Positions 3,152 through 25,808 of a stretch of DNA of 25,906 nucleotides are shown piece by piece. The position numbers and the translations under genes were made by a program. This stretch comes from a virus. How positions within the stretch are numbered: position 1 is the stretch's first letter; the number at the start of each line of letters is the position of its first letter. The notes beneath the pieces were generated by a model that did no database searches, had not been told where the DNA came from, and saw only the letters and a program-made list of their open reading frames with translations. Where the stretch lies: positions 1 through 25,906 of IMG/VR virus record IMGVR_UViG_3300009151_005268. One strand, given 5' to 3'.

Positions 3152-4636
3152 TTATCTTGATTTAAAATTTTCAAAACTTTTTATCAAGTTACCTTGTTTG
3201 TCTAATTTAGTAACATCTTTTGTAGCAATAACTTTATTATCCATTTCTGGAGACTTTGGTTTAAAATGTTCAGCTGGTTCACTCCATTTTAAACTTAAAT
3301 TGAAAGGAACACCTGATAAGTCAGATATAATTTTATTCTTAAACATATCAACATATTTTAATCCTTTATATTGTTCTACCTCACAAACACCAAAGACATT
3401 TGAAATTGAACCAATCCCACCGTGACCACCTGAAACAGTAATCTCATCTTGTCCTAATGAAGTATCTGGATTATAATAACCTAAGTGTTTTTGAAAGTTT
3501 TGTAATAATTCTGTCATATATTTACCTAAATCATTTACAACTTCACCAGTTCTTAATTTAGGAAGATTTTCAATCTCATCCATTTTCTTATATGAACAAA
3601 CTTGAAGTGTTGAACCATATTGAAGTAATATGAAGTTAGGTTCTGAATCTAAAACACCGTCTCTAAAGTCCTTTTCAACAATAGTTCTTGCTCTTAACGC
3701 ATTTGCCCAAGTACCTGTTGGTACAAAAACTAGATCTCCAATTTTTTGATAACCATCTATTTGAAGGTATTGACCATTTTTAAATTGACCAGTAAACTCA
3801 GCTTGTGTATTATAAGTCTTTTTATTAGACATTGAACCTCTAGTTTTCTTTTGCATTTCTCCTAATCTCCATTCAGAATCCTCAATAAAATCTTTCTTTT
3901 CACCTCTTTTAGGTCCACCCATTATAGCATTATGTTCTGGATAAACTTTCTTCATTACATTAAAGATAGAGTAAATAGAAGCATCTGGACAGTTTTCAAT
4001 AACAGATATAATTGTTTTTGAGTCTGAACGTTTTATAAATTGATTAAATGCTGCACCAAACTCTAATCTTCTTTTAGGAGATTTTTTAATTTCTGATAGA
4101 TTAAAATCTAAAAGTCTTTGCCAATCTATTTCATAATCCTGATACTTAGCAGCATCAATCATATCAATTACATCTAATGTAAGTGAGTCTTGTGGAGCAC
4201 CAAGTGCTTGACAAATTGCTTCATATGCAGAAGCAGTTTTTTTCTTTTGTACTGGTGAGTTTTTATATTTTTCTAAATCATCTTCATTGAATAACCCGTG
4301 ATGATCTAAGTAATAATCAATTAAATCATCTCTTTCATCTCCTGGCATGGAAGCAAAATCTAAAACAACATTTATAAGTTTCGGATCTAAAGTTGTGTAT
4401 TTCCAACCTTCAGTATAATTAAGAATGCCATATTTAACAATAGTAAATCCTTTATTAAGTAAGTATTTTTTTACTTCGATCGCGCTAGCAATTCCATCCA
4501 TGTCATCGTGAGTGTAGAGTGCAACAAATTTACCTTTTTTACCTTTTCTTAACCAATAGTCTTCCGATTTCGGAAGTCTAGGTGATGATTCCTCATTGAG
4601 TAATTCAAACTTATTAAATTGTTTTATGTTTTCCAT
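3152..4636 (-). CDS. DHH/DHHA1 family phosphoesterase (RecJ/nanoRNase-like)
   Basis: This 494-residue protein has the DHH superfamily motifs in order: THDDMDG (42-48), VVLDF (90-94), YLDHHG (109-114) and a metal-binding Asp near DAAKYQD (about 157-163). A DHHA1-like Gly-rich loop GGHGG lies at 403-407. Such proteins hydrolyse phosphodiesters of single-stranded nucleic acid, short oligonucleotides or cyclic dinucleotides using Mn2+; which of these applies is not clear. The chain has extra sequence at both ends, each containing the same pattern: IKQFNKF at 4-10 and IKSFENF at 485-491. An LNE tripeptide follows the N-terminal copy (13-15). A promoter-like element ends one base before the ATG, suggesting a leaderless message. 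The amidoligase gene ends 23 bases upstream, and the glycosyltransferase starts two bases after this stop. Confidence 0.85.
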   Translation of the reverse strand: MENIKQFNKFELLNEESSPRLPKSEDYWLRKGKKGKFVALYTHDDMDGIASAIEVKKYLLNKGFTIVKYGILNYTEGWKYTTLDPKLINVVLDFASMPGDERDDLIDYYLDHHGLFNEDDLEKYKNSPVQKKKTASAYEAICQALGAPQDSLTLDVIDMIDAAKYQDYEIDWQRLLDFNLSEIKKSPKRRLEFGAAFNQFIKRSDSKTIISVIENCPDASIYSIFNVMKKVYPEHNAIMGGPKRGEKKDFIEDSEWRLGEMQKKTRGSMSNKKTYNTQAEFTGQFKNGQYLQIDGYQKIGDLVFVPTGTWANALRARTIVEKDFRDGVLDSEPNFILLQYGSTLQVCSYKKMDEIENLPKLRTGEVVNDLGKYMTELLQNFQKHLGYYNPDTSLGQDEITVSGGHGGIGSISNVFGVCEVEQYKGLKYVDMFKNKIISDLSGVPFNLSLKWSEPAEHFKPKSPEMDNKVIATKDVTKLDKQGNLIKSFENFKSR

Positions 4637-4659: not shown

Positions 4660-6033
4660 TTACTTTTTGAAACCTTTTATTGCACCTTGTTTGTCTCCTT
4701 TTCTATCTTCTTCGAATGGTGTATCAAAGAAGTTTGAATTATCAGTAACAACTTTAACTTCTGAGTCTAAACTAGCATAAGGTCCTAATTCCCCTGAACG
4801 GAATACACCTGCATACATATTACCATTAAGATAACCACCCATAAAGTAACAGTTAGTCAATTCACTTTGTTCAACTTTACAGTTGAATATTTTTGAATTA
4901 TCTACATCAGAGTGTTGAATTTTAGATTTTGTAATTTGTGAATTTTTTATTTCAGATCCAACAAAGAAACAATCTTCAAAGATTCCCTCAACATTACAGT
5001 TTATTAAGTCACATCCTTTAATTGTTAAAAGTGATTTAAAATTCGCATCAACTATTTCAACTATTTGTGTATTGATAACATAATTTATGATACATTCTTT
5101 TAAATCTTCTGTAGCTTCAACTAAAGCAAATAGTTTAGGATAAATTTTATCATAGTAAGTATTTACCATATCATAATTATTATTCTGGTCTATTTGTATT
5201 TGTACACTAGGGAAATCAACAATAAAATTATCATATTTTGAAAGATTTTTAAATTTTGATATATTTTTCTCTAAGAACTCTTCTAATTTTGAAACGTCTT
5301 CTGCATTAAATAAAGTATCGATAGAATCAAATACATTTATAATAAATCTATCCATAAAATAAATTAGTTGACCTAAATTTTTTTCGTAGTCTTTACCACC
5401 AATATATCTTAACTCTAATCTCTGAGTTTCTTTATCATTATTGATATGTAGAAAGTTTATACCAAAATATTTATCATTTGGTAATCTTAAATTATTTTTA
5501 ACAACTGAAATAGGAATATTAAAAAAGTCATATTCTTTAAAAGGAATCATATTTTTAATACTTTTTGCATAAACATTTGCTTTTCTAGATGGATAACATC
5601 TGTATATCTCATCTTCGTCAGTATTTAATATAAGTTTTAGTATATTTAAGTCATTTAAGTTTTTATCACCATTAAAAGATAAGTTAAAATGAATAGAGCA
5701 TTTCTCGTTGGTGTACCCATAAGTTTGGATAAATTTAATAATTTTAACAAGAAAATACTTAGCATCAAAATAATCTAATGGTCCAGTTACTAACTCAACC
5801 ATGTTTGAACCTCCAGATAAATCGGGTTCGATTTTAAAGTTTCTATCATCTGGAGTAAAGTCAGAGTGATACTCTCTAAAACCCCAAACCTTTACTGGGT
5901 CTAGTTCTTGGTTAAGTAACTCTAATGCTTTATAGAAGGAAAGGTCTCTAAGGTACATCTCGAATTCAAATCCTACTACGGCGTTTTTAAGTTTGCTTGA
6001 CTGGTTTAAAAATTTGTCTGAATATTTTTCCAT
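4660..6033 (-). CDS. Amidoligase-like enzyme fused to C-terminal pentapeptide repeats
   Basis: This 457-residue protein opens with VVGFEFEMYL (19-28), the G-x-E-x-E strand of the glutamine-synthetase-like amidoligase family. It continues with IEPDLSGGSNMVELVTGPL (about 68-86) and CSIHFNLSF (about 112-120), which correspond to the E-D-S...E.vt.p and H-x-x motifs of putative amidoligases. These enzymes are predicted to form amide bonds using ATP. Residues about 339-408 are a five-residue repeat with central I/V/L/F and frequent S/C/N, such as EIKNS, QITKS, KIQHS, DVDNS and KIFNC. This is the pattern of a pentapeptide-repeat right-handed beta-helix, with about 14 turns' worth of pentads. I know of no standard family with this pairing. 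The gene has a close-spaced promoter element and is transcribed away from the HNH gene. Substrate unknown. Confidence 0.6.
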   Translation of the reverse strand: MEKYSDKFLNQSSKLKNAVVGFEFEMYLRDLSFYKALELLNQELDPVKVWGFREYHSDFTPDDRNFKIEPDLSGGSNMVELVTGPLDYFDAKYFLVKIIKFIQTYGYTNEKCSIHFNLSFNGDKNLNDLNILKLILNTDEDEIYRCYPSRKANVYAKSIKNMIPFKEYDFFNIPISVVKNNLRLPNDKYFGINFLHINNDKETQRLELRYIGGKDYEKNLGQLIYFMDRFIINVFDSIDTLFNAEDVSKLEEFLEKNISKFKNLSKYDNFIVDFPSVQIQIDQNNNYDMVNTYYDKIYPKLFALVEATEDLKECIINYVINTQIVEIVDANFKSLLTIKGCDLINCNVEGIFEDCFFVGSEIKNSQITKSKIQHSDVDNSKIFNCKVEQSELTNCYFMGGYLNGNMYAGVFRSGELGPYASLDSEVKVVTDNSNFFDTPFEEDRKGDKQGAIKGFKK

Positions 6034-6085: not shown

Positions 6086-6862
6086 ATGAAATTGTGTAAA
6101 AAGTGTAATACTACCAAAGAATTTTTAGAATTTTCAAAAAAGAAAAGTAATAAAGATGGACTAAATAATTGGTGTAAAGAGTGCAACAAAGAATATTTGA
6201 AGAATTACTATTTAGAAAATAAGGAATTATACTCTGATAGAAGTAAAGAATATTATGAATTAAACTCTAATACAATTAAAGAAAATAGTAAAAAATGGAG
6301 AGAGAGTAATATAGAGTATACAAAAGAATATCATAAAAAATACTATTCAGAGAATAAGGAAGGATTATTAGAGTATAAAAAAGAATATTATAATAATAAT
6401 AAAGATATATATTTAGAAAGATCTAAAGATCAAAGAGATAGTAATCCTGTTGAATACTCAAATTATCTTAAAAATTGGAGAAAATCTAATCCTGAATATA
6501 TGAGGAATTATTGGAAAGATAATAAAATTAGTAAACAGAGATATGATTATAATTATAGAACTAAATATCCTCATGTTGTAGCATGGAGAAGTTCTTTGAA
6601 GTCTGCACTTACTAGAATTGGAAGTATTAAAGAATCAACAACTATTGATATGTTAAAGTATTCTGCAAATGATTTGAGAACTCATCTAGAGTTATTATTT
6701 TTGGATGATATGTCTTGGAATAATTGGGGAGAGTGGCATATAGATCATAAAATACCGGTTTCAAAGTTTGAACCAAATACACCGATTCATATTGTTAATA
6801 GTCTTAGTAATCTCCAACCTTTATGGGCCTTTGACAACCTATCAAAAAATAATAGATCTTAA
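6086..6862 (+). CDS. HNH homing endonuclease with N-terminal zinc ribbon
   Basis: This 258-residue protein has three parts. An N-terminal treble-clef/zinc-ribbon-like unit has Cys4, Cys7, Cys30 and Cys33. A long Lys/Tyr/Asn/Glu-rich helical stretch (about 34-150) repeats KEYY..N units, as is common in phage HNH enzymes. The C-terminal HNH domain has WHIDHKIPVS (217-226), then SNLQPLWAFDNLSKNN ending at residue 256. Such enzymes nick or cut DNA to spread their own gene. It stands alone with no visible intron or intein, and its stop is one base before the ATG of the next gene. It belongs to a different family from the LAGLIDADG enzyme about 4 kb away. Confidence 0.88.
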   Translation: MKLCKKCNTTKEFLEFSKKKSNKDGLNNWCKECNKEYLKNYYLENKELYSDRSKEYYELNSNTIKENSKKWRESNIEYTKEYHKKYYSENKEGLLEYKKEYYNNNKDIYLERSKDQRDSNPVEYSNYLKNWRKSNPEYMRNYWKDNKISKQRYDYNYRTKYPHVVAWRSSLKSALTRIGSIKESTTIDMLKYSANDLRTHLELLFLDDMSWNNWGEWHIDHKIPVSKFEPNTPIHIVNSLSNLQPLWAFDNLSKNNRS

Positions 6863-9501: not shown

Positions 9502-10005
9502 ATGGATATATTTTCTTTATATAAAACAGTTAAATTTAGTAATGCAGATAATACTTATAACCTTTTTGAACCGACTATTCTTTTTCTTAATGATGGTTTG
9601 AATGAATACACAGTAACCGATACAGATGAAATGCGAATAGATTTAGTAATTCAAAATATGTATAATTTAGAACCAAACTCAACATATAATATATTAGAAA
9701 ATATTGATGTTATTTTAAGACTAAATAATATTGATAATCCACTAAGTGTTAAGTCAGGAATGATTTTAAAATTCCCACCTATAGGTAAGTTTGAAGATTT
9801 TAGATATTCTGAATCATTAGAAGAAACTAGTAATAATGTTACTAAACAATTAGGAGTTAGAAATAATATTAGTAAAGTAACTAGAGTAGACCCAAATAGA
9901 CAAAATTATATAGAAAATGATTACTCATTATCACCAGTTGTTTTGGATACACCAAGAGAACCTGTTAGAATAATAGATGGTAGATTTTCAATAGGAGGAT
10001 TATAA
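9502..10005 (+). CDS. LysM-like baseplate wedge protein (gp53-like)
   Basis: In this 167-residue protein, residues about 35-92 read as a LysM-type unit: YTVTDTDEMRIDLVIQNMYN, then ILENIDVILRLNNIDNPL and SVKSGMILKFPP. The order is entry threonine, helix, N-N-I-x-N-P and a closing hydrophobic strand. T4 gp53, a baseplate wedge component, has a comparable LysM-like arrangement, and the size and setting suit that role. The C-terminal 70 residues are polar, with no recognised domain. The gene starts 15 bases after the upstream stop and ends one base before the start of the hydrolase gene, so it is mid-operon. An AGGAGG precedes the next start but is embedded in this coding region. A generic LysM peptidoglycan-binding role is the main alternative. 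Confidence 0.55.
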   Translation: MDIFSLYKTVKFSNADNTYNLFEPTILFLNDGLNEYTVTDTDEMRIDLVIQNMYNLEPNSTYNILENIDVILRLNNIDNPLSVKSGMILKFPPIGKFEDFRYSESLEETSNNVTKQLGVRNNISKVTRVDPNRQNYIENDYSLSPVVLDTPREPVRIIDGRFSIGGL

Positions 10006-10006
10006 T

Positions 10007-11656
10007 ATGGATGAGATTAAATCAGTAAGAGTAAGAAGAACGGATATAAAGTCAGGTACTTTGGATATTAGAGTAACTATATATGAGGATAAACATACAT
10101 TTGGTGCAGATGATCGAATAGTTGTGGGTGTTTACAATCCATTCAAACCAGATGCAAAAGTAGTTTGGATAGAAACAACATATAAGAAAAAGGGTTTATA
10201 TAAAGATTTTACCGATGATCAATTTATAACAGACTTCATAGATATGAATTCTAAAAGTGAAGGTGGTGGTAAAGAATATGAGATAATACAAGATCCCTGG
10301 GAGAATAAAGTGCCTATTTGGAGAAAGTATGGATTTGATCCTTACTACTTAAATAATGGAGCACAGATAATTATAAGTTGGAATGAGAATAATATAATAT
10401 CGGGTGGATATACTTATAGTAGTGATACTGGCAAAGAAGTAAATACATCCTCTCTGATTAGTAAAACAAATTGGATTATTGGTGTCAATGATCCATCTAA
10501 AGATCAAAATAATTTATTACATTTCACTAAAAATAATGAAATCGATTATAGAAATAAAGCTGTTGATTGTAAAGTATATGGTGGCTTAGTTACCGATCTT
10601 TATATAATACAAGAGATTATTGAAGCTTGGAAAAGAAAAGTTCCTGGTTATGATGAATTGGCACTTTGTTCACCTAATAATGAAAGTTGTTCTATAATAC
10701 CTTATAAAAGTCCTTTAAAACCACCTGAACCAGAAACACCACCTACAGTAAAAGAAGCAGTCAATGAACCACCTAAAGAAAAAATGACAATAGTTCTACC
10801 ACCAGATGTGGTAAAGGTTAAAAGTGATATAACATCTTTTGTAGTTTATGTTGGTAAAGGGAAAGAGAAAGGATTATTAGAAAATCCGAAAACTGAAGAA
10901 GATGAATTTATTTTTGATGATTCTCCTGGTATAGATGAATACACTGAGTCTGAATTTGTCGGTAACGAGGAAGCCCCTGCGGATCTACCAGATGTTGATC
11001 CTGCCGCAAGTTCTGTACAAGAAACATCTACGGAGACCTCTTATACACCACCAGTGGTAGCATCAGGTAAAGTTGTTTCACTACCAACAACATATTCACA
11101 TACATCAACACAAGGATTTAATTTATTAAATTCACAATGGATTGGTGATCTAATAACATCTGCCATTAGTCATATTGGACACCCAACATATGATATTGAA
11201 GGAACAGAAAAGGGTGGACTTGGTTGTGCATCAGCGGTTTCTATGATGTTCTATCGAGCGTTTGGTGTTCACATGAGAACAGGTAGTGCAGTAAAAGCAA
11301 ATCCTAAATCTATTGGTGATTTTGGTAGTAAAGGAACTGGAGAACTTGCAGGTTGGTTATCAAATGGTAGTTTATATGTTAAATTAAATTGGAAGGATGC
11401 ACAACCTGGTGATATATTAAATACAGCAAAAGCAAGTAAGGCAGGTCATATTGGTGTTGTAATTAATACTAAAAATAATGACGGTAGTTGGAATGTAGTA
11501 TCTAATAGTTCTAAAGGTTTTGCCGGTGGAGGTGGTGGTGCAGTTAAACAAAACTACTCTGTTAAAAAATGGCAATCTGTTGCAGATAGAAATCCATCAG
11601 GAACATTTGCATATAGATATACTGGTCCTAAACTAGGCAGTGGAAACATAGCATAA
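10007..11656 (+). CDS. Tail-associated cell-wall hydrolase with C-terminal NlpC/P60 (CHAP-like) cysteine peptidase domain
   Basis: This 549-residue protein should cut peptide bonds of peptidoglycan during infection. Residues 1-230 are a beta-rich unknown domain, probably the virion attachment part. Residues about 235-350 are a Pro/Glu-rich linker containing an acidic segment, DEYTESEFVGNEEA (310-323). The C-terminal domain (about 375-540) has GLGCASAVSMMFYRA with candidate nucleophile Cys407, the QPGDI turn typical of the family (466-470), and AGHIGVV with candidate His481. The third polar residue may be Asn500. It is the last gene of the plus-strand operon and is followed at once by a strong hairpin terminator. 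The acidic linker motif recurs in the GH19 lysin on the other strand. Domain call fairly firm; bond specificity unknown. Confidence 0.75.
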   Translation: MDEIKSVRVRRTDIKSGTLDIRVTIYEDKHTFGADDRIVVGVYNPFKPDAKVVWIETTYKKKGLYKDFTDDQFITDFIDMNSKSEGGGKEYEIIQDPWENKVPIWRKYGFDPYYLNNGAQIIISWNENNIISGGYTYSSDTGKEVNTSSLISKTNWIIGVNDPSKDQNNLLHFTKNNEIDYRNKAVDCKVYGGLVTDLYIIQEIIEAWKRKVPGYDELALCSPNNESCSIIPYKSPLKPPEPETPPTVKEAVNEPPKEKMTIVLPPDVVKVKSDITSFVVYVGKGKEKGLLENPKTEEDEFIFDDSPGIDEYTESEFVGNEEAPADLPDVDPAASSVQETSTETSYTPPVVASGKVVSLPTTYSHTSTQGFNLLNSQWIGDLITSAISHIGHPTYDIEGTEKGGLGCASAVSMMFYRAFGVHMRTGSAVKANPKSIGDFGSKGTGELAGWLSNGSLYVKLNWKDAQPGDILNTAKASKAGHIGVVINTKNNDGSWNVVSNSSKGFAGGGGGAVKQNYSVKKWQSVADRNPSGTFAYRYTGPKLGSGNIA

Positions 11657-12000: not shown

Positions 12001-13959
12001 TTAACCTCTTTCTAATTTTAGTTGGTCAAAATCTTTTTGAGCTTCTTCTTTTAAAGTCTTTTGTAATAATTCTAAGTTAGTATTTTTATAAGTTTCACTT
12101 TTTATATCTCTACCATTTGTAGAAGTTAAAGTACCACTATAATTTCCTACTGTAGTATCTTGTGTAATTATATATTCTACTTTTATATCATTATCAACAT
12201 ATAAATCTTTACTAACCATTTTACCTGCAGACCAATCTAATAAAGGACTCGTTGTATTAGTTGCCTCAACTGTTGGAGTGGTTGTAGTAGTTTCACTTGT
12301 TGTTGGAACAAAAGTATCAAACTCACTTTGTTTAGCAAAAGTATAAGTAAATGTATCTTTTTTAGCAATAGTAACTTGACTTTCACACAATGATATAAAT
12401 TGATCCCATTGTGATACGGTTTTAAATACTTGTGCACCACCAGAATAGTTAAATACATTTTCTGCGGACCCTACATCACTTGACTTATGAATTAAGACAA
12501 TTGATTTCACGTTTATTTTTTCTGATTTATAATTATAAATACTTGTAGAATCATTTATATGTATGGTAACCTCATCAATCTTTATACATTTATCTGTTTT
12601 AATTGGTGTTGTAGTAGGGTCGGATGTATAAGTATCTAACTTACATAAATCTGCATATTGTCCTAATGCCAATAATCCAACACCCTCTGGTAATAATTCA
12701 GTTTTTGGGAAATAACCAGGCATTGTTGTTATTTGATATTCTAATAATTCCCAATTTCCATTTTGATTTTTATAGAATACATTTAGTGTATCATCAAATT
12801 TATTTGATATACTTCCATTATCTTTTTTACTAGATTGAAACGCAACAATATTTAATACACCAATTTGATCATAGGTTCTATAATTCTTAGATTTTAGGAA
12901 TTTAAGAAGAGTATCTATTTTTGGATTTGATGTTGGTGATGATAATGGTTCCGCAGGTGGATTAGTATTTATCGCATTTGTTGCACCATTTGCAATACTT
13001 GAAGTCGCTGTATTAGTTACTCCATTGGTCACACTTGGTGTTGTTCCAGTAGCTGTGGGTGTATTACCCGTAGTACCAGTCGTTGCTGGACCAGTTGCTA
13101 GACTTGTTGCTGGAGGAGTAGAAGGTTCTACGTGTTTATCATTATACTCTGGCTTAGGTCCATCTACTGGTTTAAAATTCTCATTGGTTTTAGAAGTTAA
13201 ATCATTATCTTTTTTAGTAGAACTCCAAGCATCACCAAGTTGTGCAGTATCTTCTCTATGAGTATTCTTAACTGTAGAAACTTTATTATTATCCACAATG
13301 TTTACATGGTGTGATAAGAAAACAGGATCTCTTAATTGTTTATACTTCATTAAAACTTGTATCATTGCAGGATTAGTAACAACTGGTGCTCCTAAGTTAC
13401 CTAAATAAGGACCTCCTTTATCTCCCATTAAATTATCAACAAATTCATCAAACCAGTCCATCCAGTGATTTCCTAAGATCGCTTGTTGTCCGGCAGTAGC
13501 ATCTCCAATATTCACGTGTCTATTATTGTCCTTTAAATTAAGGTCAATAGTATTTTCTGTAATATTGATATTATTATACTTATGATCTATTTTTAAACCT
13601 TCTTTATCATTTACATATATTTGAGTTTTATGATCAAATATAAGTGACTTCATAGAAATATAATCTGTTGTAGATAATGATGTTAGTTTTTTTTCTAAAT
13701 TCACATTATAGTGATCTGCAGATATAAACTCTGGTTTGTGTTCATCACCAGAATCAAATACAACTAAAAGTACTTTACCTTTTTCAGGTACATTAAACTC
13801 ATTACCATTAAGATCCTTCCACGGACTGGCGAAAGGTATATCTTCTGTTTTAATATTATCAAATACATCCAGAACTCTAACCCTTGCACGACCTAATTTT
13901 AATGGATCATTATTATCTTCAACAACTCCAATATATGTTTTATTTGCTTCTACTTTCAT
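12001..13959 (-). CDS. Baseplate central spike, gp5-type OB-fold plus C-terminal L,D-transpeptidase-like domain lacking the cysteine
   Basis: Residues 1-85 of this 652-residue protein form a gp5/VgrG-type OB-fold, starting YIGVVEDNNDPLKLGRARVRV and followed by TEDIPFASPW. Residues about 95-180 are short strand repeats ending in NIGDATAGQQAILGNHWMDW, the usual run into the spike beta-helix. Residues about 265-345 are a Thr/Pro/Asn-rich linker. Residues about 347-545 resemble a phage-associated domain related, as I recall it, to L,D-transpeptidases: LNIVAFQS, NKFDDTLNVFY, TTMPG, LALGQY, LIH (His491), SGGAQVF (506-512) and TFTYTF. In the relatives I remember, the last-but-one motif is S-x-G-C-Q-V; here Ala509 replaces Cys, so the domain is probably non-catalytic. 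Unlike T4 gp5 there is no embedded lysozyme. The gene starts six bases after the preceding gene's stop, in the same operon. Confidence 0.75.
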   Translation of the reverse strand: MKVEANKTYIGVVEDNNDPLKLGRARVRVLDVFDNIKTEDIPFASPWKDLNGNEFNVPEKGKVLLVVFDSGDEHKPEFISADHYNVNLEKKLTSLSTTDYISMKSLIFDHKTQIYVNDKEGLKIDHKYNNINITENTIDLNLKDNNRHVNIGDATAGQQAILGNHWMDWFDEFVDNLMGDKGGPYLGNLGAPVVTNPAMIQVLMKYKQLRDPVFLSHHVNIVDNNKVSTVKNTHREDTAQLGDAWSSTKKDNDLTSKTNENFKPVDGPKPEYNDKHVEPSTPPATSLATGPATTGTTGNTPTATGTTPSVTNGVTNTATSSIANGATNAINTNPPAEPLSSPTSNPKIDTLLKFLKSKNYRTYDQIGVLNIVAFQSSKKDNGSISNKFDDTLNVFYKNQNGNWELLEYQITTMPGYFPKTELLPEGVGLLALGQYADLCKLDTYTSDPTTTPIKTDKCIKIDEVTIHINDSTSIYNYKSEKINVKSIVLIHKSSDVGSAENVFNYSGGAQVFKTVSQWDQFISLCESQVTIAKKDTFTYTFAKQSEFDTFVPTTSETTTTTPTVEATNTTSPLLDWSAGKMVSKDLYVDNDIKVEYIITQDTTVGNYSGTLTSTNGRDIKSETYKNTNLELLQKTLKEEAQKDFDQLKLERG

Positions 13960-13965
13960 AACTTA

Positions 13966-16209
13966 TTACTTTTTAATAAAACTAGTCGCTCCACTTAAAA
14001 TATTACTGACTGCACCTCCTGCAAAGTCTGCTAGCTCATTTCTAATATCATAGAAGAATCTATCAGTTGTGTTTGTTAAAGCAATACCCATTGGATCTTG
14101 AGGTCCAGTATAAATATTTTGTGGTGGACTAATTCCCTTTTTCCCAACAAAATCAATTAAAAGTTTATTTATTGTTCTTGATAATAAACTAACTCTACCA
14201 TTTACTAATGTTGCCAATTCCTGTTTAGCACTTTTAACAGTTTTATCCTTTAATCTTTCAATAAAGTTACCAATATTAGTATCTGCTTTTTTATTAGTTA
14301 GCTCTTTTAAAGATGTTGGAATCCCAACAGTTTTATTTTTCTCAGTAAAGTTTTTTATTGCAGATTCTGCACTACTTTTTAATATTGTTTTAGGGTCGTT
14401 TAATAACTCTAATTTTTTAGTTTGTTCTTTTGCCAACTTACTCAAATCTGCACCAATCGCAGTTTGATCTTTTGCGTATTTTTTATATTTATCTAAGTCA
14501 AATTTATCTTCTTTATCGGTAGCTTCTAAATCATCTACTTTGTCATCTTTTGTGAATAAATCCAATAAATTTGTACCATCTGCTAAGTTAACACCAAATC
14601 TACTTAGTACCGCAGGTGATTTAACACCATTATCATTAGTTGTATTAGTACCTGATGTAAAAAATCTAGGTAAAGAAGTATCACTGGTAGTGGATTGTGT
14701 TCCACCTCTTGCAACTCTTGCACCAGGATTACCAATTTTCCAAATTGCACCACCATCATAACCTATGTATTTACCAAAATTGGCAGATGGCATAAATCTT
14801 TCAAACTTAACAGTAGAGTATTTATAATCAAATTGAATACCATAAGTATCATAAGTTGCAATATTAGCCATATCAATATCTGGATTATGTGGCATTGTAT
14901 TAAAATAGAACTGACACTCCTTTAAAGAATAGACATATCTAGATAAGTTATCCTTAATAACTTCTAAGTCACCATTACCCATTGCTTTTCTAACTCTATT
15001 AAAATTTCTACATTCAGAAACTATAATATCACAATTAAATCTTAATAAATTTTCAGGAACTAAATTTTTACCATTTGGTTTAGACCAATATAATAATTTA
15101 TATAAGTGTGCTAAAGTACCCATTGTCAATGATACGTCCTCTGTAAAATCAAGTGTAATAACATCTGTTCTATAATCAACAAGGAATTTTTTCTTGTCTG
15201 GTGTATTTGATTCTATTAAATTTCCTAATCCACCAATCTTTTTAAGATAATAACTCATATAAGCTGCCTTACCACCTCTAAATATATCCTTAGAACTATC
15301 AGTATTTGCATAATTTGATTTACTTTTACTTATTGATACCTGATCTGCATTTATATTTAGATTAGTTTTAGTTCTGAATAATTTAGAAAACTGTTGTTTA
15401 AAATCCTCATAAACTGGAATCTTATATTTTATCTCATCAACACCACTATATATTTTTAGAAAATCAAGTACAGAACCATTTAATAATGGAGAAGATACAT
15501 CATCTATTATGATTTCGAATCCAAACATAACAGGAACATTATTCTCGAAAGGAGTTTCTTGAAACTGTGATAAACGTAGATCCGATTTTCCATTTTCTGG
15601 ATTCTCAATAGGAGTTAAATTATCAATTACTTGTAAACCGTGTTTAAAATAATCTGTTTTTGTATCATTAAATAATAGGTAGTAATCACGTGTACTATAA
15701 GGAGATGTTTTTAAATCATTTTTAGTTTTTGGTAACTTTTTACTTTCATTAAATCTATCACTAGTATCCAAAATAGTTGAGTTTGCACCTGGTTTTATTA
15801 GTTGTCCCATCCAATCAACATATTCATACTCTCCTAGCTTAATTTCATTTACTGTACTAGGAGTTGCATCTAAATTATTTTCAGGATTAGTATTATCACC
15901 AGTAGTACCTGCAGTATACTGATCAGTTGACTTTGGTGTTGTTCCAAATCTAAGATCTTTACTGGGGTAAATAAAATGTGGTGATAAAAAACCTTTATCA
16001 ATACTTGCTTGTGGCCATGCTGTTCCTTTTTTAATAATATTATCGATGTTTGATCTTAAATCACCTTTAATTTTATTAAGATCAACTGTCTCAATTTGTC
16101 CAGTCGCTTTGTTAAAAATAGTATATGTTCCTGCCTTATACGAGTATTTTGGAGGAGCACCAACAATTGATTGGTCACTTGCAGAGGTAGGAGTTTTACT
16201 TAGATCCAT
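13966..16209 (-). CDS. Large baseplate/tail-tube-related structural protein
   Basis: This 747-residue protein has a polar, mostly unstructured-looking N-terminus (1-125). A structured middle (about 170-480) includes FGFEIIIDD (229-237), LLNGSVLDFLKIYSG, and LLRFNCDIIVSECRNF (388-403). The stretch YVYSLKECQFYFNTMPHN (425-442), followed by GIQFDYKYSTVKFER (457-471), has the look of the central strand pair of tail-tube-fold proteins, such as gp19 and its baseplate relatives gp48/gp54. The C-terminal third is Lys/Asp/Thr-rich, probably helical. A single GTQS tetrapeptide occurs at 503-506, echoing the repeats in the hub and lysin. The gene has a promoter-like element 18 bases upstream and is followed six bases later by the spike gene. 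Role as tube initiator or hub adaptor is an inference from position and this weak resemblance. Confidence 0.5.
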   Translation of the reverse strand: MDLSKTPTSASDQSIVGAPPKYSYKAGTYTIFNKATGQIETVDLNKIKGDLRSNIDNIIKKGTAWPQASIDKGFLSPHFIYPSKDLRFGTTPKSTDQYTAGTTGDNTNPENNLDATPSTVNEIKLGEYEYVDWMGQLIKPGANSTILDTSDRFNESKKLPKTKNDLKTSPYSTRDYYLLFNDTKTDYFKHGLQVIDNLTPIENPENGKSDLRLSQFQETPFENNVPVMFGFEIIIDDVSSPLLNGSVLDFLKIYSGVDEIKYKIPVYEDFKQQFSKLFRTKTNLNINADQVSISKSKSNYANTDSSKDIFRGGKAAYMSYYLKKIGGLGNLIESNTPDKKKFLVDYRTDVITLDFTEDVSLTMGTLAHLYKLLYWSKPNGKNLVPENLLRFNCDIIVSECRNFNRVRKAMGNGDLEVIKDNLSRYVYSLKECQFYFNTMPHNPDIDMANIATYDTYGIQFDYKYSTVKFERFMPSANFGKYIGYDGGAIWKIGNPGARVARGGTQSTTSDTSLPRFFTSGTNTTNDNGVKSPAVLSRFGVNLADGTNLLDLFTKDDKVDDLEATDKEDKFDLDKYKKYAKDQTAIGADLSKLAKEQTKKLELLNDPKTILKSSAESAIKNFTEKNKTVGIPTSLKELTNKKADTNIGNFIERLKDKTVKSAKQELATLVNGRVSLLSRTINKLLIDFVGKKGISPPQNIYTGPQDPMGIALTNTTDRFFYDIRNELADFAGGAVSNILSGATSFIKK

Positions 16210-16267: not shown

Positions 16268-18460
16268 TTAAGCTAAATTTTTATAAAGACTTGGTGCAGC
16301 ATTAAATGCTTTCTTTCTACCACCAGTTGAATCTGCAACAAGAAGACTATAAGAATTACCCCAACCAGCATTTGCATGATAAATAGCACCAGTTGCATCA
16401 TTTAGTGTTTTAAAATCATTAATAGAACCTGATGTATTATACTGAGTTCTAAATTTACTTGGCATTTCGGCCATTCTTTGTATAAAATATACAACAATAC
16501 AATCTGCGGCAACTTCTATTGTATTAAGTAAATCAGGGTCTGCTACTATTTTGTGTCCTGTCTTTTTTTGTGCTTCTTGGTAACCACTCTTAAATGTCAA
16601 TTGATTAAAACCTCTTCCTCTATATTTATATCCTTCATCCGCAGCATTACCATATTTACCACCATATATTATGTCAAAAAACTCTTTAGGTATTTTTTTA
16701 ATTCTATCAACTTCCGAGTCACTATATTTTCTAAATTTAGAAAATATAGACTTTATTCTACTTGCAGATGTTTTTGCATAAGAGCCTTCATTTCTTGGAA
16801 CAAAAGCACTCTCTTTACTAACAATTGCAAGTATTGCGGCTTGTGTAAATTTATTTGTTATTTGTTTTTTCTTCATTGCTGCTACAATAGCAGCAATGTT
16901 TGCTTGTTTATTTTTAGGTATTGGATATGGTGAACCAGCATCTGTTGAAATAGCAGGATCCGGATTCTCAGGATCAAATCCTTTAATCGAATTTAATGCC
17001 TCAACATCTACAGTGGCATCTTCTTTTAAAAATTCTGCAGATATTTCTTCACTTCCGGCAAACTCATCTTCAACATATTCACTACCAACATCAACACCGT
17101 CATCATATAATAAAGTTTCATCTTCTTGACCAATAATAAATAGGTTACCAAAGTCCGCATTTGAAAATATATCTAATTGCTCTACATTAAAAGTAAACTC
17201 TTGTGTACTTATTATTGTACTTGCAGTTGGACCAGGAACTGAACTTTCTGAAGCACCAGTTACTACACTTGCAGTTGAACCTACTGGTGCATCACTTGGT
17301 GGAACTACCGGAGGTCCATCTGGTTCTGTATATTTAAGATAAATTGCCAACCCATAAGTACCTTCAACTATATTTTGTAAATTTATAATTACATCATCTG
17401 CAAGAGACTTTTTAGTTCCAGTACTTTTACCACTATTAAATGTAATAGTACCTGTGTTATTTGGTACTACTACTTTAGTTTTTGGATTTGTCCAAGGATT
17501 TGGTAATCCATTTAATGTACTATTAGGAATTATATATGTTCCACTTTCGATAAAGGTTATTTTACCTTCAACTTTCTTCTCAATATCACTCAGTGGATTT
17601 ATTACACTCAATATATAGTCATTGCTAGCAGTAGATTGTGTACCAGATTGTGTACCAGATTGTGTACCAGATTGTGTACCAGAAGTTTGAGATGGGAAAA
17701 AGTTATCACCTGCTTCTAAAACCGCTTGGAAATATTTGGATTGATCTGAACTAGCATTAATACCACCTAATTTAAAACGTGAACCTTCATCATAATAACC
17801 CTTTAGATAACTATCTCTTAACTCATCTTCAATACTCATGAAAAGACTAGAGTAGTCACTTCCTTTTAATGTTGATACAGATATTTTTGAACCATATATA
17901 GTTCTATATAACGAATGCATCCAGAAATCAAACCAAGCTTTACCTCCTAAATTTTTAAGTTTTTTAAGTGCCTCAAAAGTAACAAACTCATCACAATTAT
18001 CATTTAAAACCGACTTCAAAATAAATACATCTGTAGGTTGTGATGTTATATGTAGTGCATTTTTATATTGTTGTCCCAAATAAGACATTGTTCCATAAGT
18101 ATATCCGTCAATATAAATTTTAGTATCTGTTACACTATTATCATCGGGAATATATTCATCAACTATAATTGACTTTCTTCTACGATTATCAAATTTATCA
18201 ACAATAGGATTACCATCTACAGGATAAGACCATTCAAATAGTTGTCCTAATGTCGTTACATCAAATCCAGGTATTGTAAAGTTTTCATCTTCATTTCTTG
18301 GATATATTTTTAATGCAGGCATCTTTAATACAAACGGAACAGTAAGTGCAGTAGCAGTTTGTCTTGCTGCTAAATATTGATTTATATTTTCCTGTGATGC
18401 GGCTATCTTTACATCGACTTCTGTATTCCATGCATCAATAAATTCTTGTATCTTTGACAT
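16268..18460 (-). CDS. Tail lysin with C-terminal GH19-like (chitinase/lysozyme) domain
   Basis: Residues 1-378 of this 730-residue protein are a module shared with the hub gene just upstream. Shared landmarks are MSKIQxFID, INQYxAARxTAxA, LEAGDN/IEAGDN, four GTQS repeats (261-276), the SD.xKKxEGxIxF strand, LPxPxTNPxT, and LADxVIINLQ (353-362). An acidic segment EYVEDEFAGSEE lies at 461-472. Residues about 518-730 look like a glycoside hydrolase family 19 domain. AAILAIVSKESAF carries candidate catalytic Glu550, DEGYKYRGRGFNQLT (608-622) carries Glu609 and the hallmark YRGRG, and AIYHANAGWGN follows near the end. It should cut the glycan strands of peptidoglycan at the tail tip. It starts six bases after the hub gene's stop with no promoter of its own. 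Family call firm; virion location inferred from the shared module. Confidence 0.85.
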   Translation of the reverse strand: MSKIQEFIDAWNTEVDVKIAASQENINQYLAARQTATALTVPFVLKMPALKIYPRNEDENFTIPGFDVTTLGQLFEWSYPVDGNPIVDKFDNRRRKSIIVDEYIPDDNSVTDTKIYIDGYTYGTMSYLGQQYKNALHITSQPTDVFILKSVLNDNCDEFVTFEALKKLKNLGGKAWFDFWMHSLYRTIYGSKISVSTLKGSDYSSLFMSIEDELRDSYLKGYYDEGSRFKLGGINASSDQSKYFQAVLEAGDNFFPSQTSGTQSGTQSGTQSGTQSTASNDYILSVINPLSDIEKKVEGKITFIESGTYIIPNSTLNGLPNPWTNPKTKVVVPNNTGTITFNSGKSTGTKKSLADDVIINLQNIVEGTYGLAIYLKYTEPDGPPVVPPSDAPVGSTASVVTGASESSVPGPTASTIISTQEFTFNVEQLDIFSNADFGNLFIIGQEDETLLYDDGVDVGSEYVEDEFAGSEEISAEFLKEDATVDVEALNSIKGFDPENPDPAISTDAGSPYPIPKNKQANIAAIVAAMKKKQITNKFTQAAILAIVSKESAFVPRNEGSYAKTSASRIKSIFSKFRKYSDSEVDRIKKIPKEFFDIIYGGKYGNAADEGYKYRGRGFNQLTFKSGYQEAQKKTGHKIVADPDLLNTIEVAADCIVVYFIQRMAEMPSKFRTQYNTSGSINDFKTLNDATGAIYHANAGWGNSYSLLVADSTGGRKKAFNAAPSLYKNLA
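17633..17683 (-). repeat. Four tandem 12-base coding repeats (SGTQ units)
   Basis: The plus strand shows AGATTGTGTACC four times in a row with no base change, encoding GTQS repeats at residues 260-276 of the GH19 lysin. Identity at the DNA level points to recent slippage expansion. Confidence 0.85.
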
Positions 18461-18466
18461 TATTCA

Positions 18467-21400
18467 TTAAATATTTTTTATAGTTGCTTTTACTTCTTTA
18501 CCATTTTCAGAAACTTCAGTAATTGTAAGTTTAAACGTTTTGCCAGAATTATTCTGAACAAGATATATTTGACCTACTTTGTAAACACTATTTGGTGGAA
18601 CTGCAGTAGATAACTTCGGTTGTACTTGACCAGGTACAACCGGATTTTCATTTTTCTGAGTATTGACCTCAGCTTTAGCAGGTTCGGAATTTGCATCTTT
18701 TTTCAACTCTTCATCTGTTTTACTAAGTTCTTTTCTAACCGCAGTAACTTTTTGTGTTAGATTACCTTGCATCCAAGTATATGATATATCAATAATAACC
18801 CATTCACCAGTTAAACGTTTTTGAGAAACTTCATCATTGGTAACAGTGGATTTCATATTGACAAAGTTTAGTTGTATTTTCATAAACTTATATAAATTGA
18901 AATTTGCATTAGGAAGTTCTAAATCAACAGAAATCCTTGCCATATTATCAAAGTTTACTTTATTCTGTGTTTCTGAATAGTAATATTGTTTATGTACATT
19001 TTCAGTATCCATTTTACCAGAGTATTTTGTACGATAGTTATCTTTAATGCTCTTATCATCAGCCGGAGCACCCTTTAGTATAATACTCTTTGATCCATCT
19101 GATGTCTGTGAATCAACATCAAATACTAAAAATTGTTTTTTTATACTATCATAAACTTTCGATACCGTAAAGTGACCATTATTAAGAGAAGTTTGTGTTG
19201 AATTATTATTTACTCTATATTTGTTAAAAAAGAATGAACTACTATTTTGACTTAAATCATTACTTAATTGTAATTTTACAACCTTTTCACTTTCATCCTT
19301 ATTACTATTTAAGTGACTCAATCCTTTAGAATTTATACCAACATCCGTAGATATATCTCTATTCCACTCTTTTTCTATATCTACATAATTGAAACAGTAA
19401 TAAAAGTCAACATAACCAATAAGAAATGTTGTATCCGAAATATATGAGTGTGAAATAATATCAGACATAAAGGTTCTAAATAACTTACCATTATTTACCC
19501 AATTCATACTATCAGAAGTATTGGTAATATTAGAATTAAAACCTATTTCTAATTCTTTAGATATTTTTTGTAATACCTCAAATGATGTTCCTTTATAACT
19601 TTGAAATCTTATTTTATAAAAGTCTTGAAGATCTAAAGTACCGACTATTGTATATGTTTTACTCTTATTTTCTTGGAAATTTTTTAATTTAAACTTTAAG
19701 TGTATTGATTTAAGATTTTTTGAACCAGAGTTTAAAAATATTTCAAATTTACTGTCATCAAGTGGAAATCCTTTCTTTTTCATAACACCAATTGAATCAA
19801 TAAATACAATTGATACCACAGGTACAAGACCTTCATAATATAGATTTAATGATTTTATATATCTTTGATCTATCTGAACTCCAGCATACCAAAAGAATGG
19901 TGTAAATCCAAGTGCACCCGCCACTTCTGCATTATCCTTTTTATCCTCTAGTGCATCAAATTCAATAGACTTTAACTTAATAGTAGGTTTATCTATTTGT
20001 GCAATTATTGGACGAGTACCTTTTACTTCTATTTCTTTATCACCACCTCTTGACTTATCTTGTGCAATAACATCATCTTCTGGTAAAACTTTTATTGTAA
20101 CCTCGGATGTTTCTACGAGATTTGAATCAGGTATCACCGTAATAACATAATCACCAGGAGCATCAAACTGAATGCCTACAAAATTTACAAAACCGTCTTT
20201 TACTATTTGTTCTACTTCACCTATTATTTCACCAGGTCCACTTTTCTTTTGTAGTTTAATCTTTATTCCTGTAGCATCAAAAGTACTTTGAGTCATACCA
20301 GATTGAGTTGCGGTTAAAGGTGTAGACTGTGTACCTGATTGAGTACCAGATGCCGATGCAGAAACAGGAGTAGGAGCATCAGGATTTTTTGTATATTGTA
20401 ACTTTAATTCAACTCCGTAGTAATAATCTATCATACTTTGTAGATTTATAATTACCTCGTCTGCTAATACTGTTTCATAAGTATCAGGGTAAGATGATGC
20501 ACTTATTTTTTTTGTTTTATAGGTTAATTCTCCATTAGCATCGGTAGTTTCTTGTGACGTTACTTCTCGACCAGTTCTTGGATTAGTAAATGGAGTTGGT
20601 AAGTTAATCAATCTAGAACTAGCACTAACTTGTGGACCTAAATGTGTGAATGAAATAGAACCTTCAATTTTTTTATCATTATCACTTTTAGGATCCTTTA
20701 CAGTTATTTTATAATCACCTGTTTCAAGAACGGATTGTGTGGCTGATGATTGTGTAGCATTTTGTGTCACTGATTGAGTTCCAGACTGTGTACCGGATTG
20801 AGTTCCAGACTGTGTCGCAGATACCGGTGCTGGTAGTTGATAGTTATCACCTGCTTCAATAAATGCGTCATATAAAATTTGATCAGTAGAAAACCACTCT
20901 ATTGGACTATCAGCAACACCATACTGACCATATCTATCTTTAAATTTTTCAATAAAGTCATTATAGTCATGATTAAATTCAGAAAGTGTTTTATAATCTG
21001 ATGTTAATTTTTGTTCTGATTTTAAAAATGTAAGTGCTGATGACATAAACGCATCAAACCACTTTTGTGCACCAAATGATCTAAGATCGTTAATATAATC
21101 TAAGGAATTTTTATATCTATATGTACTCTTTAAAATTTCATATACTGGTTTTGCACCAGTATCTGGATCTTTAAGAACACCAATAACATCAACATATATA
21201 GCACCTTCACCCCCTGAGACATTTGGAAGTATTTGTTTTCCACCTTCAGGATTAGGATAAACAAACTTAAATAAATCACCAACTGTTTTTACACTCGGAT
21301 CTGATTGATAAACATTATTACTATCTGGAGAACTACCGTAGGGCCAAGAACATATTTTACCATAAGTTATTGCAATCGCAGTAGTCCTAGCGGCTTTATA

Positions 21401-21484
21401 TTGATTTATCTTATCAACAAAGGAGTTAAGTACTGGTAGTAACGTTGGCTCAAAATTATCAATAAAAGTTTGTATTTTTGACAT
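18467..21484 (-). CDS. Baseplate hub protein, gp27/gpD-like, with N-terminal module shared with the GH19 lysin
   Basis: Residues 1-366 of this 1005-residue protein are paralogous to the start of the GH19 lysin (see that entry), with GTQS-type repeats at 223-251. A second cluster lies at 379-400. Residues about 405-470 look like an Ig-like or FN3-like strand domain. From about 525 the chain resembles hub proteins of contractile tails: FFWYAGVQID, then SIVFIDSIGVMKKKGFPLDD, and SYKGTSFEVLQKISKELEIGF (629-649). A late LTGEWVIIDISYTWMQGNLTQKVT stretch followed by VRKEL is the usual close of gp27/gpD-like hubs. It would form the ring joining the tube to the spike. It has a promoter-like element 20 bases upstream and is first in the minus-strand virion block. 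The hub call rests on pattern resemblance, supported by the neighbouring spike and lysin. Confidence 0.65.
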   Translation of the reverse strand: MSKIQTFIDNFEPTLLPVLNSFVDKINQYKAARTTAIAITYGKICSWPYGSSPDSNNVYQSDPSVKTVGDLFKFVYPNPEGGKQILPNVSGGEGAIYVDVIGVLKDPDTGAKPVYEILKSTYRYKNSLDYINDLRSFGAQKWFDAFMSSALTFLKSEQKLTSDYKTLSEFNHDYNDFIEKFKDRYGQYGVADSPIEWFSTDQILYDAFIEAGDNYQLPAPVSATQSGTQSGTQSGTQSVTQNATQSSATQSVLETGDYKITVKDPKSDNDKKIEGSISFTHLGPQVSASSRLINLPTPFTNPRTGREVTSQETTDANGELTYKTKKISASSYPDTYETVLADEVIINLQSMIDYYYGVELKLQYTKNPDAPTPVSASASGTQSGTQSTPLTATQSGMTQSTFDATGIKIKLQKKSGPGEIIGEVEQIVKDGFVNFVGIQFDAPGDYVITVIPDSNLVETSEVTIKVLPEDDVIAQDKSRGGDKEIEVKGTRPIIAQIDKPTIKLKSIEFDALEDKKDNAEVAGALGFTPFFWYAGVQIDQRYIKSLNLYYEGLVPVVSIVFIDSIGVMKKKGFPLDDSKFEIFLNSGSKNLKSIHLKFKLKNFQENKSKTYTIVGTLDLQDFYKIRFQSYKGTSFEVLQKISKELEIGFNSNITNTSDSMNWVNNGKLFRTFMSDIISHSYISDTTFLIGYVDFYYCFNYVDIEKEWNRDISTDVGINSKGLSHLNSNKDESEKVVKLQLSNDLSQNSSSFFFNKYRVNNNSTQTSLNNGHFTVSKVYDSIKKQFLVFDVDSQTSDGSKSIILKGAPADDKSIKDNYRTKYSGKMDTENVHKQYYYSETQNKVNFDNMARISVDLELPNANFNLYKFMKIQLNFVNMKSTVTNDEVSQKRLTGEWVIIDISYTWMQGNLTQKVTAVRKELSKTDEELKKDANSEPAKAEVNTQKNENPVVPGQVQPKLSTAVPPNSVYKVGQIYLVQNNSGKTFKLTITEVSENGKEVKATIKNI
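20732..20818 (-). repeat. Diverged TQS/GTQS repeats in the hub gene
   Basis: This stretch encodes about six TQS-containing units at residues 223-251. A second, shorter cluster lies at about 20285-20353. Codons differ between units, unlike the exact copies in the lysin gene. Confidence 0.7.
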
Positions 21485-24803: not shown

Positions 24804-25454
24804 ATGAAGTATTTAAAGATTTTCGAGACATTTGATAGAAATGACACATTATACGTGTTCGATTTTGATGATACTCTTGTAAACACGCCAGAATTTGAAG
24901 GGTTTGTTATTGAATACTTAACAGAAGATGTTTCTATAAAAGAAATAGTAGATAAATCAACTAAAAGTATTGGTGTAAATAAGTCAGATTTAAAATGGCA
25001 AGATGGTAGAATCTATATAGAAGATCCAAGTGAGAATATTGAAATAAAAGGAAATTGGGTTAGAAAAGGTAAAAGAGTTTATCTTACTGCACCAGATATA
25101 TTTGGTACAACTGATTTAAGTTTACCAACAGAAACATTGGAACTAGTAGATTTTTATAATTCAGTAGAGAATAAATGTATAGTAACTGCTAGACCTGAAC
25201 AAATTAGATTTAAAATTGAGATGGTAATGAAAAAACTTGGAATTGAATATCCTAAATATGGACTACATATGTATCCTTATAAAAATCATTATAATGCAGG
25301 TGGTTGGAAAGGCGAAAAGATTGTTGAGTTAGTTGAGAAAACTGGATTTAATAAAGTCATATTCTACGATGATAATATAAAGTATTTAAAAGGAGCTACT
25401 AAAGTTGTTAAGAGTAAACTACCGAATCTTGATTACAAGTATGTAAAAGTGTAA
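24804..25454 (+). CDS. HAD-superfamily phosphatase
   Basis: This 216-residue protein has HAD motif I FDFDDTLV (19-26, nucleophile Asp20, acid/base Asp22), motif II VTARPE (about residues 130-135), and a late acidic pair FYDDN near 189-193, with a Lys in between. The set suits a nucleotide or nucleic-acid phosphatase of the polynucleotide-kinase/RNA-repair HAD kind, but the substrate is not readable. Its first ten residues, MKYLKIFETF, lie ahead of the HAD core. They carry the LKxFxxF pattern at exactly the positions (4-10) where the DHH protein has IKQFNKF. It is divergent from clpP. No terminator is seen between it and the acidic-protein gene, which has its own promoter-like element. Confidence 0.8.
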   Translation: MKYLKIFETFDRNDTLYVFDFDDTLVNTPEFEGFVIEYLTEDVSIKEIVDKSTKSIGVNKSDLKWQDGRIYIEDPSENIEIKGNWVRKGKRVYLTAPDIFGTTDLSLPTETLELVDFYNSVENKCIVTARPEQIRFKIEMVMKKLGIEYPKYGLHMYPYKNHYNAGGWKGEKIVELVEKTGFNKVIFYDDNIKYLKGATKVVKSKLPNLDYKYVKV

Positions 25455-25502: not shown

Positions 25503-25808
25503 ATGAAAACTAAAGTTGAAGTACTTGGATATGAAATCGAAATTGAAGAAGTTGATGGTGTTGTAACTGTTAAAGCTGAATTAGATGGTGAAACTGTTGA
25601 AGAATTCACTCTTGAAGCTCCTGAAGAAGGACAAGGTCAAGAAGAATCTGAAGATGGTGTTAAAGCATTTAAAGATTTTGATGGTCAAGGTGAAGAAGAA
25701 GATTTCGGAGACGAAGAATCTGAAGGTGAAGAATCTGAAGAAGAAGATGAGGACGAAGAAGAAGGTAAAGCACTAGAATCTTTTCAATCTTTTTTCAATA
25801 AAAGATAA
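25503..25808 (+). CDS. Small, very acidic protein, possible prohead core/scaffold component (gp67-like in character)
   Basis: This 101-residue protein has a short beta-rich N-terminus (1-38) and then an almost purely Glu/Asp/Gly/Ser tail (40-88), broken by VKAFKDFD (53-60). It ends in ALESFQSFFNKR (90-101). T4 gp67, a small prohead core protein, likewise has an extremely acidic C-terminal half, but there is no alignable identity, so the comparison is one of character only. Both hydrophobic islands fit the [ILV](K/E)xFxxF pattern found at the ends of the HAD and DHH proteins. It is a single-gene unit with a virion-type promoter-like element and a strong terminator, which suggests high late expression. 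Alternatives are a DNA mimic or a chaperone-like acidic protein. Confidence 0.65.
   Translation: MKTKVEVLGYEIEIEEVDGVVTVKAELDGETVEEFTLEAPEEGQGQEESEDGVKAFKDFDGQGEEEDFGDEESEGEESEEEDEDEEEGKALESFQSFFNKR

What the first reader, a model, noticed from the sequence alone, without database searches (positions are those of the whole stretch)
17327..21484. Hub and GH19 lysin share a duplicated N-terminal module of about 370 residues
Seen: both proteins start MSKIQxFID and share INQYxAARxTAxA, LFxxxYP, (L/I)EAGDN, GTQS repeats, SDxxKKxEGxIxF, LPxPxTNPxT and LADxVIINLQ in the same order, then diverge to a hub fold or a GH19 lysin. The genes are adjacent. Inference: a tandem duplication produced a common docking part, placing the enzyme on the baseplate in the same way as the hub, rather than embedding a lysozyme in the spike as T4 gp5 does.
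Basis: partly seen in the sequence, partly recalled or inferred. Interest (0 to 1): 0.65.

Follow-up and report, generated by a model that had tools for sequence, protein, structure and literature searches.

The report
Swappable tail lysins at phage hub
Two neighbouring tail-tip proteins of an uncultured, huge-phage-related virus share two domains; relatives show that the wall-cutting enzyme is an interchangeable end piece that moves between tail-tip proteins at a short acidic joint.

Summary
The hub (18467-21484) and the GH19 protein ("gene2", 16268-18460) are homologous over residues 1-375, but the module is two separable domains: helical A (26% identity, E=3e-8) and B (37%, E=1e-22). Two AlphaFold2 models made from separate alignments agree in secondary structure (A 78%, B 92%); no coordinate overlay was possible, and gene2's A is low-confidence. 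The hub core has the T4 gp27/VgrG fold. In 23 related genomes A and B come and go independently: gene2 carries A+B, B, A or neither, and hubs often lack both. All 20 gene2 proteins share an 'FNVE...GxLxI' segment, nearly all followed by an acidic 'EYxExxFxGxEE' motif. That motif recurs in a second baseplate enzyme protein (10007-11656), and enzymes are exchanged at it. Docking parts stay with their gene (174/188 similar pairs); enzyme parts do not (25/41, 20.4 expected). Enzymes fused to the hub itself in six relatives support placement at the hub. Best reading: modular virion lysins at the hub, with A/B a duplicated accessory. New variant of a known kind.

The parts
18467..21484 (-). Baseplate hub protein, 1005 aa: A, GTQS linker, B, beta-sandwich domain, gp27/VgrG-type core, C-terminal tail
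20840..21484 (-). Hub domain A (residues 1-215), all-helical
20351..20716 (-). Hub domain B (residues 257-378), beta4-alpha-beta
18719..19930 (-). Hub core (residues 519-922), T4 gp27/VgrG fold
   Evidence: VIA Z 19.3, rmsd 4.2, 312 aligned to T4 gp27 1k28_D; Z 20.1, rmsd 4.2, 314 aligned to P1 hub 9vzk_1
16268..18460 (-). gene2: probable virion lysin carrier, 730 aa: A, linker, B, M1/M2 joint, GH19 enzyme
17699..18460 (-). gene2 domain A (residues 1-254)
17633..17683 (-). Perfect 12-bp tandem repeat (4.2 copies) coding the GTQS linker of gene2
17282..17620 (-). gene2 domain B (residues 281-393)
17045..17251 (-). gene2 joint region M (residues 404-472): M1 'FTFNVEQLDIFSNADFGNLFI' and acidic M2 'EYVEDEFAGSEE' (461-472, 17045-17080)
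16271..17044 (-). gene2 enzyme cassette (residues 473-730), GH19; putative catalytic Glu550 and Glu558
10007..11656 (+). Second lysin carrier, 549 aa: its own N-terminal docking part, M joint (residues 251-323; acidic motif at 10937-10972), CHAP/DUF1287-like enzyme
12001..13959 (-). Spike protein with gp5-type OB domain; no enzyme domain detected
13966..16209 (-). Conserved baseplate-cluster protein, 747 aa, between gene2 and spike; function unknown
9502..10005 (+). Conserved 167-aa protein next to the second lysin carrier in the baseplate cluster

Best explanation
The phage carries two separate tail-tip lysins beside the hub: gene2 (GH19) and the 10007-11656 protein (CHAP-like). Each is built as carrier-specific docking part, then acidic joint, then interchangeable peptidoglycan enzyme. 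They most likely sit in the virion at the gp27-type hub and open the cell wall when the tail contracts, while the OB-fold spike itself has no lysozyme. Domains A and B are shared by hub and gene2 because an old duplication or exchange copied them between these neighbouring genes; they are accessory domains of the hub region and not the essential anchor. The best candidate anchor of gene2 is the FNVE...GxLxI segment. Enzyme cassettes are swapped between gene2, the second carrier and the hub, with the crossover at or just after the EYxExxFxGxEE motif. Shown: homology of A and B, hub fold, GH19 fold, cassette exchange, hub-enzyme fusions in relatives. Inferred: presence in the virion, contacts with the hub, action during entry, anchoring by the FNVE segment.
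For: Homology of A and B. Hub core gp27/VgrG fold: Z 19-20. GH19: profile against PDB 8p8e E=4.7e-18, VIA Z 10-11 to phage GH19 endolysins, Glu pair conserved in L040, L011 and L054. Docks stay with their gene in 174 of 188 similar pairs (all 14 exceptions involve L051 gene2); enzyme parts 25 of 41 against 20.4 expected from carrier-label flips, P=0.125; five of eight multi-member enzyme families occur on more than one carrier. Breakpoints at the motif: W/L040 gene2 36% identity just before it, 89% after; W/L001 gene2 95% before, 26% after; L003 gene2/L004 second carrier 18% before, 91% just after. Profiles trained on one carrier type find the acidic motif in most proteins of the other type above the best shuffled score. 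Enzyme fused to the hub: N-terminal in L017, L054, L020, L037; C-terminal in L026, L055. A and B dispensable.
Against: No proteomics or complex prediction, so virion location is inferred from gene position and fusions. The M region is predicted disordered (pLDDT under 50), so an anchor there is a guess from conservation. Similar pairs are not independent, and some distant gene2 proteins (L014, L016, L018) were identified partly through the M profile. In L037 and L016 the acidic motif is not clear.
Confidence: 0.68

Rival explanations
1. One reading: a tandem duplication of the hub gene's 5' part made a common docking module (A+B) that places the GH19 enzyme on the baseplate by the same contacts as the hub.
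For: A and B are homologous and collinear in adjacent genes, in the window and five related contigs; predicted secondary structure agrees.
Against: A and B occur separately; gene2 lacks A in L008, L010, L040, L025 and L012, lacks B in L037, and shows neither in L011, L017 and L064; many hubs lack both. A recent duplication is rejected (AU p=2e-5). L008's hub B groups with gene2 B of its own lineage (89/95 support), though a single hub-B clade is not excluded (AU p=0.077).
Confidence: 0.15
2. gene2 and the second carrier are late-lysis endolysins and not virion proteins; the shared domains serve expression or folding.
For: The enzyme classes (GH19, GH24, VanY, CHAP, Amidase_2) are also those of endolysins.
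Against: Both lie in the conserved baseplate cluster, gene2 shares domains with the hub, and homologous enzymes are fused to the hub in other lineages. In cultured Synechococcus phage BUCT-ZZ01 a 43% identical GH19 lies in a protein annotated as gp5-like baseplate hub subunit.
Confidence: 0.07
3. A and B are assembly or trimerisation domains needed to build an enlarged hub in this subclade; their presence on gene2 makes it a structural ring or collar first and an enzyme second.
For: They are found only on hub or gene2-type baseplate proteins, and the hub's N-terminal position hosts an enzyme or other domains in other lineages.
Against: No complex structure; no fold match could be assigned to A.
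Confidence: 0.1

Closest known systems
T4 gp27-gp5 cell-puncturing device (PDB 1k28; gp5 as tail lysozyme, PMC7650644)
   Same: gp27-type hub core; OB-domain spike encoded nearby; tail-borne wall enzyme
   Different: The spike has no detected lysozyme; enzymes are on separate carrier proteins beside the hub, two per genome in most relatives, and of exchangeable class
Tail-associated lysins with a gp27-like hub part and a hydrolase in one chain (Tal type; for example NF5, PDB 9m7n, matched; that such proteins carry hydrolases is from general knowledge)
   Same: Enzyme tied to a gp27-type hub; relatives L017, L054, L020, L026, L037 and L055 have such fusions
   Different: In the window the enzyme is on a separate gene with its own carrier parts
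GH19 phage endolysins (SPN1S 4ok7, KTN6 gp46 8p8e)
   Same: GH19 fold and the Glu pair
   Different: Here the domain is the C-terminal cassette of a baseplate-cluster protein
Polymorphic toxins (PMC3482391)
   Same: Constant delivery part with recombining C-terminal enzyme domains
   Different: Enzymes would act on the host wall during phage entry; exchange runs between different carriers of one machine

Membership tests
gp27/VgrG-type baseplate hub | Core fold of gp27/VgrG hub proteins | tested here: met
   Residues 519-922 align to T4 gp27 (Z 19.3, rmsd 4.2, 312 residues) and P1 hub (Z 20.1, rmsd 4.2, 314 residues)
gp27/VgrG-type baseplate hub | Neighbouring OB-fold spike gene | tested here: met
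   12001-13959: phrog_430 baseplate hub and tail lysozyme 1.9e-13 over the OB part; Phage_base_V 7e-5, just under the Pfam cut-off here but above it in L001, L004, L012, L017
gp27/VgrG-type baseplate hub | Trimer binding tube and spike | not testable with these tools
   Needs complex prediction or structure
GH19 lysozyme/endolysin | GH19 fold | tested here: met
   phrog_181 endolysin 1.8e-19; profile to 8p8e 4.7e-18; VIA Z 10.5, rmsd 5.1, 180 residues to 8p8e; Pfam GH19 2.7e-4, under its own cut-off
GH19 lysozyme/endolysin | Catalytic glutamate pair | tested here: met
   Glu550 aligns with a Glu of 8p8e and Glu558 with the ENL region; the role as catalytic pair is from general knowledge of the family
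GH19 lysozyme/endolysin | Peptidoglycan hydrolysis | not tested
   Bench assay needed
T4 gp5-type spike lysozyme | Lysozyme domain within the OB-domain spike | tested here: not met
   Only the OB domain is detected in 12001-13959 by Pfam and PHROGs
Hub-fused tail lysin (Tal type) | Enzyme in the same chain as the hub | tested here: not met
   In the window the enzyme is on a separate ORF; met in relatives L017, L054, L026, L055

The most novel reading that the evidence does not exclude
The acidic EYxExxFxGxEE motif is a general joint or release signal for tail lysins in this huge-phage lineage: one binding partner or processing step recognises it on every lysin carrier, so that any enzyme placed behind it becomes a virion lysin, and the phages swap wall enzymes across it as hosts change their cell wall.
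Probability: 0.3. Interest if true: 0.7.

Novelty: new variant of a known kind. Interest (0 to 1): 0.52.

Why it matters
How huge phages open the host wall is largely unknown because their baseplate genes are mostly unannotated. These loci define a conserved cluster (hub, gene2, 747-aa protein, spike, second lysin carrier) and a rule for finding its enzymes: look behind the acidic joint. Constant carrier parts with freely exchanged wall enzymes form a natural cassette system that can be tested in virions and could help in finding lysins.

Tried and rejected
Recent tandem duplication in this lineage: rejected for A. Whole-gene duplication: rejected, since gene2 shows no hub core and the window's hub no GH19. 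A in other phages or bacterial genomes: no relative in annotated phages (one hit at E=0.5 taken as chance) or in genome contigs. B as an alignment query could not be searched. PDB sequence search with the hub profile found nothing credible. No fold match was assigned to A; weak Z 5-6 matches of gene2's B to actin-capping protein were taken as a common arrangement. Lysozyme in the spike: none detected. Acidic motif in the loci of Flavobacterium phage MaF61 and of LR756500, LR756501, LR756502 and LR756504: none convincing. Coordinate overlay of the two models: no coordinates available.

Full report
Observation. The two ORFs are where the finding says. They align collinearly from residue 1 (E=7e-36). 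Without the GTQS repeats two significant blocks remain: A, 26% identity, E=2.8e-8, and B, 37%, E=1.3e-22. The pattern and its order recur in L001, L002, L004, L044 and L045.

Fold. Hub and gene2 were predicted from separate alignments; no hub A or B sequence was in the gene2 alignment and no gene2 sequence in the hub alignment. Through the sequence alignment, predicted secondary structure agrees at 78% of positions in A (53% expected from composition) and 92% in B (36% expected). The hub model is good in most of A (80-95) and fair in B; gene2's A is poor and its B good. The hub core, residues 519-922, has the gp27/VgrG fold. The enzyme is GH19.

Surroundings. The window is a 25.9-kb virus record with 30% GC. 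Its relatives are IMG/VR contigs and the uncultured phage records LR745206 (635 kb) and LR756502 (642 kb), with weaker hub matches in LR756500, 501, 503 and 504. The 735,411-base records match in size the 735-kb genome of PMC7162821; that link is my inference. The conserved set is hub, gene2, 747-aa protein, OB spike and, in most, an opposite-strand second lysin carrier with a 167-aa protein.

A and B are mobile. A was found on hubs of the window, L001, L002, L004, L008, L044 and L045, and on gene2 of the same set except L008; L037 has A on gene2 only. B begins gene2 in L008, L010, L040, L025 and L012, a further ORF in L014 and L016, and the hub of L051, and it ends the hub of L012. Hubs of L010, L040 and L025 have neither. 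gene2 of L011, L017 and L064 starts with an SLT domain, and that of L051 with a docking part like that of the second carrier. Tree of A: gene2 copies and hub copies separate (100/100), and a recent duplication in the window's own clade is rejected (AU p=2e-5), while the place of L037 is open (p=0.40). Tree of B: L008's hub copy groups with gene2 copies of its lineage (89/95), but one hub-B clade is not excluded (p=0.077). So copying between neighbours happened, but the history is not one tandem duplication of a 370-residue block.

What is constant. All 20 gene2 proteins share 'FNVE...GxLxI'; nearly all follow it with 'EYxExxFxGxEE'. The acidic motif, without the gene2-specific part, is also in the second carrier. 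Profiles trained on one carrier type find it in the other: scores of about 10 to 32 in most, against a best shuffled score of 5.9 or 4.9; both L016 proteins and L037 gene2 fail.

What is swapped. Enzymes behind the joint are GH19, a second GH19 type, GH24, VanY/M15, CHAP types, Amidase_2 (L037, joint unclear), Phage_lysozyme2, C39, DUF5675 and unassigned types. Docking parts stay with the gene in 174 of 188 similar pairs (all exceptions L051 gene2). Enzyme parts do so in 25 of 41, against 20.4 expected when carrier labels are flipped within genomes (P=0.125). Pairs are not independent; counted by family, five of eight multi-member enzyme families occur on more than one carrier. Examples: the window's GH19 is 88-89% identical to L040's gene2 enzyme although their docks are 41% identical, and 62% identical to the enzyme of L011's second carrier; L003 gene2 and L004's second carrier share a VanY-type enzyme at 73%. 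Identity changes at the acidic motif.

Where it acts. Six relatives carry an enzyme on the hub chain: GH19 at the N-terminus in L017 and L054; a weak GH19-like match in L020 (E=2.5e-5); a homologue of the unassigned L044 gene2 C-terminal part in L037 (E=1.4e-11); GH19 at the C-terminus in L026; joint plus VanY at the C-terminus in L055. L020, L026 and L055 show no separate gene2. Such fusions argue that the separate lysins work at the hub. In Synechococcus phage BUCT-ZZ01 a 43% identical GH19 lies in a protein annotated as gp5-like baseplate hub subunit, and in Maribacter phage Colly_1 in the tape measure.

Conclusion. The claim that A+B is the docking part made by tandem duplication is not supported as stated. 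The more informative pattern is the carrier-joint-enzyme plan and the exchange of enzymes across it.

Noticed in passing
L002/L003, L016, L018: UvsW gene next to the hub: The UvsW helicase ORF is split in several relatives (L002/L003 near residue 267; L016 and L018 near residues 451-471, with a 319-aa ORF between the pieces in L018): recurrent intron-, intein- or homing-endonuclease-like insertions.
   Followed up: no
1213-2124 (-) and 6086-6862 (+): Probable LAGLIDADG and HNH homing endonucleases in the window; both Pfam matches are under their cut-offs.
   Followed up: partly
12001-13959 (-), residues 551-652, and spikes of L001, L003, L004, L044: The spike's C-terminal tail is also replaced between close relatives (at least three tail types), so it may be a further variable position.
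   Followed up: partly
2172-3149 (-): Glycosyl transferase family 1 protein (Pfam 2.4e-32) near the baseplate cluster.
   Followed up: no
3152-4636 (-), 24804-25454 (+), 25503-25808 (+): Several unrelated window proteins begin or end with short similar motifs (MKYLKIFETF / SFENFKSR / SFQSFFNKR), possibly a targeting tag; not tested.
   Followed up: no
4660-6033 (-): Protein with a weak pentapeptide-repeat C-terminal part and, by eye, an amidoligase-like N-terminal part.
   Followed up: no
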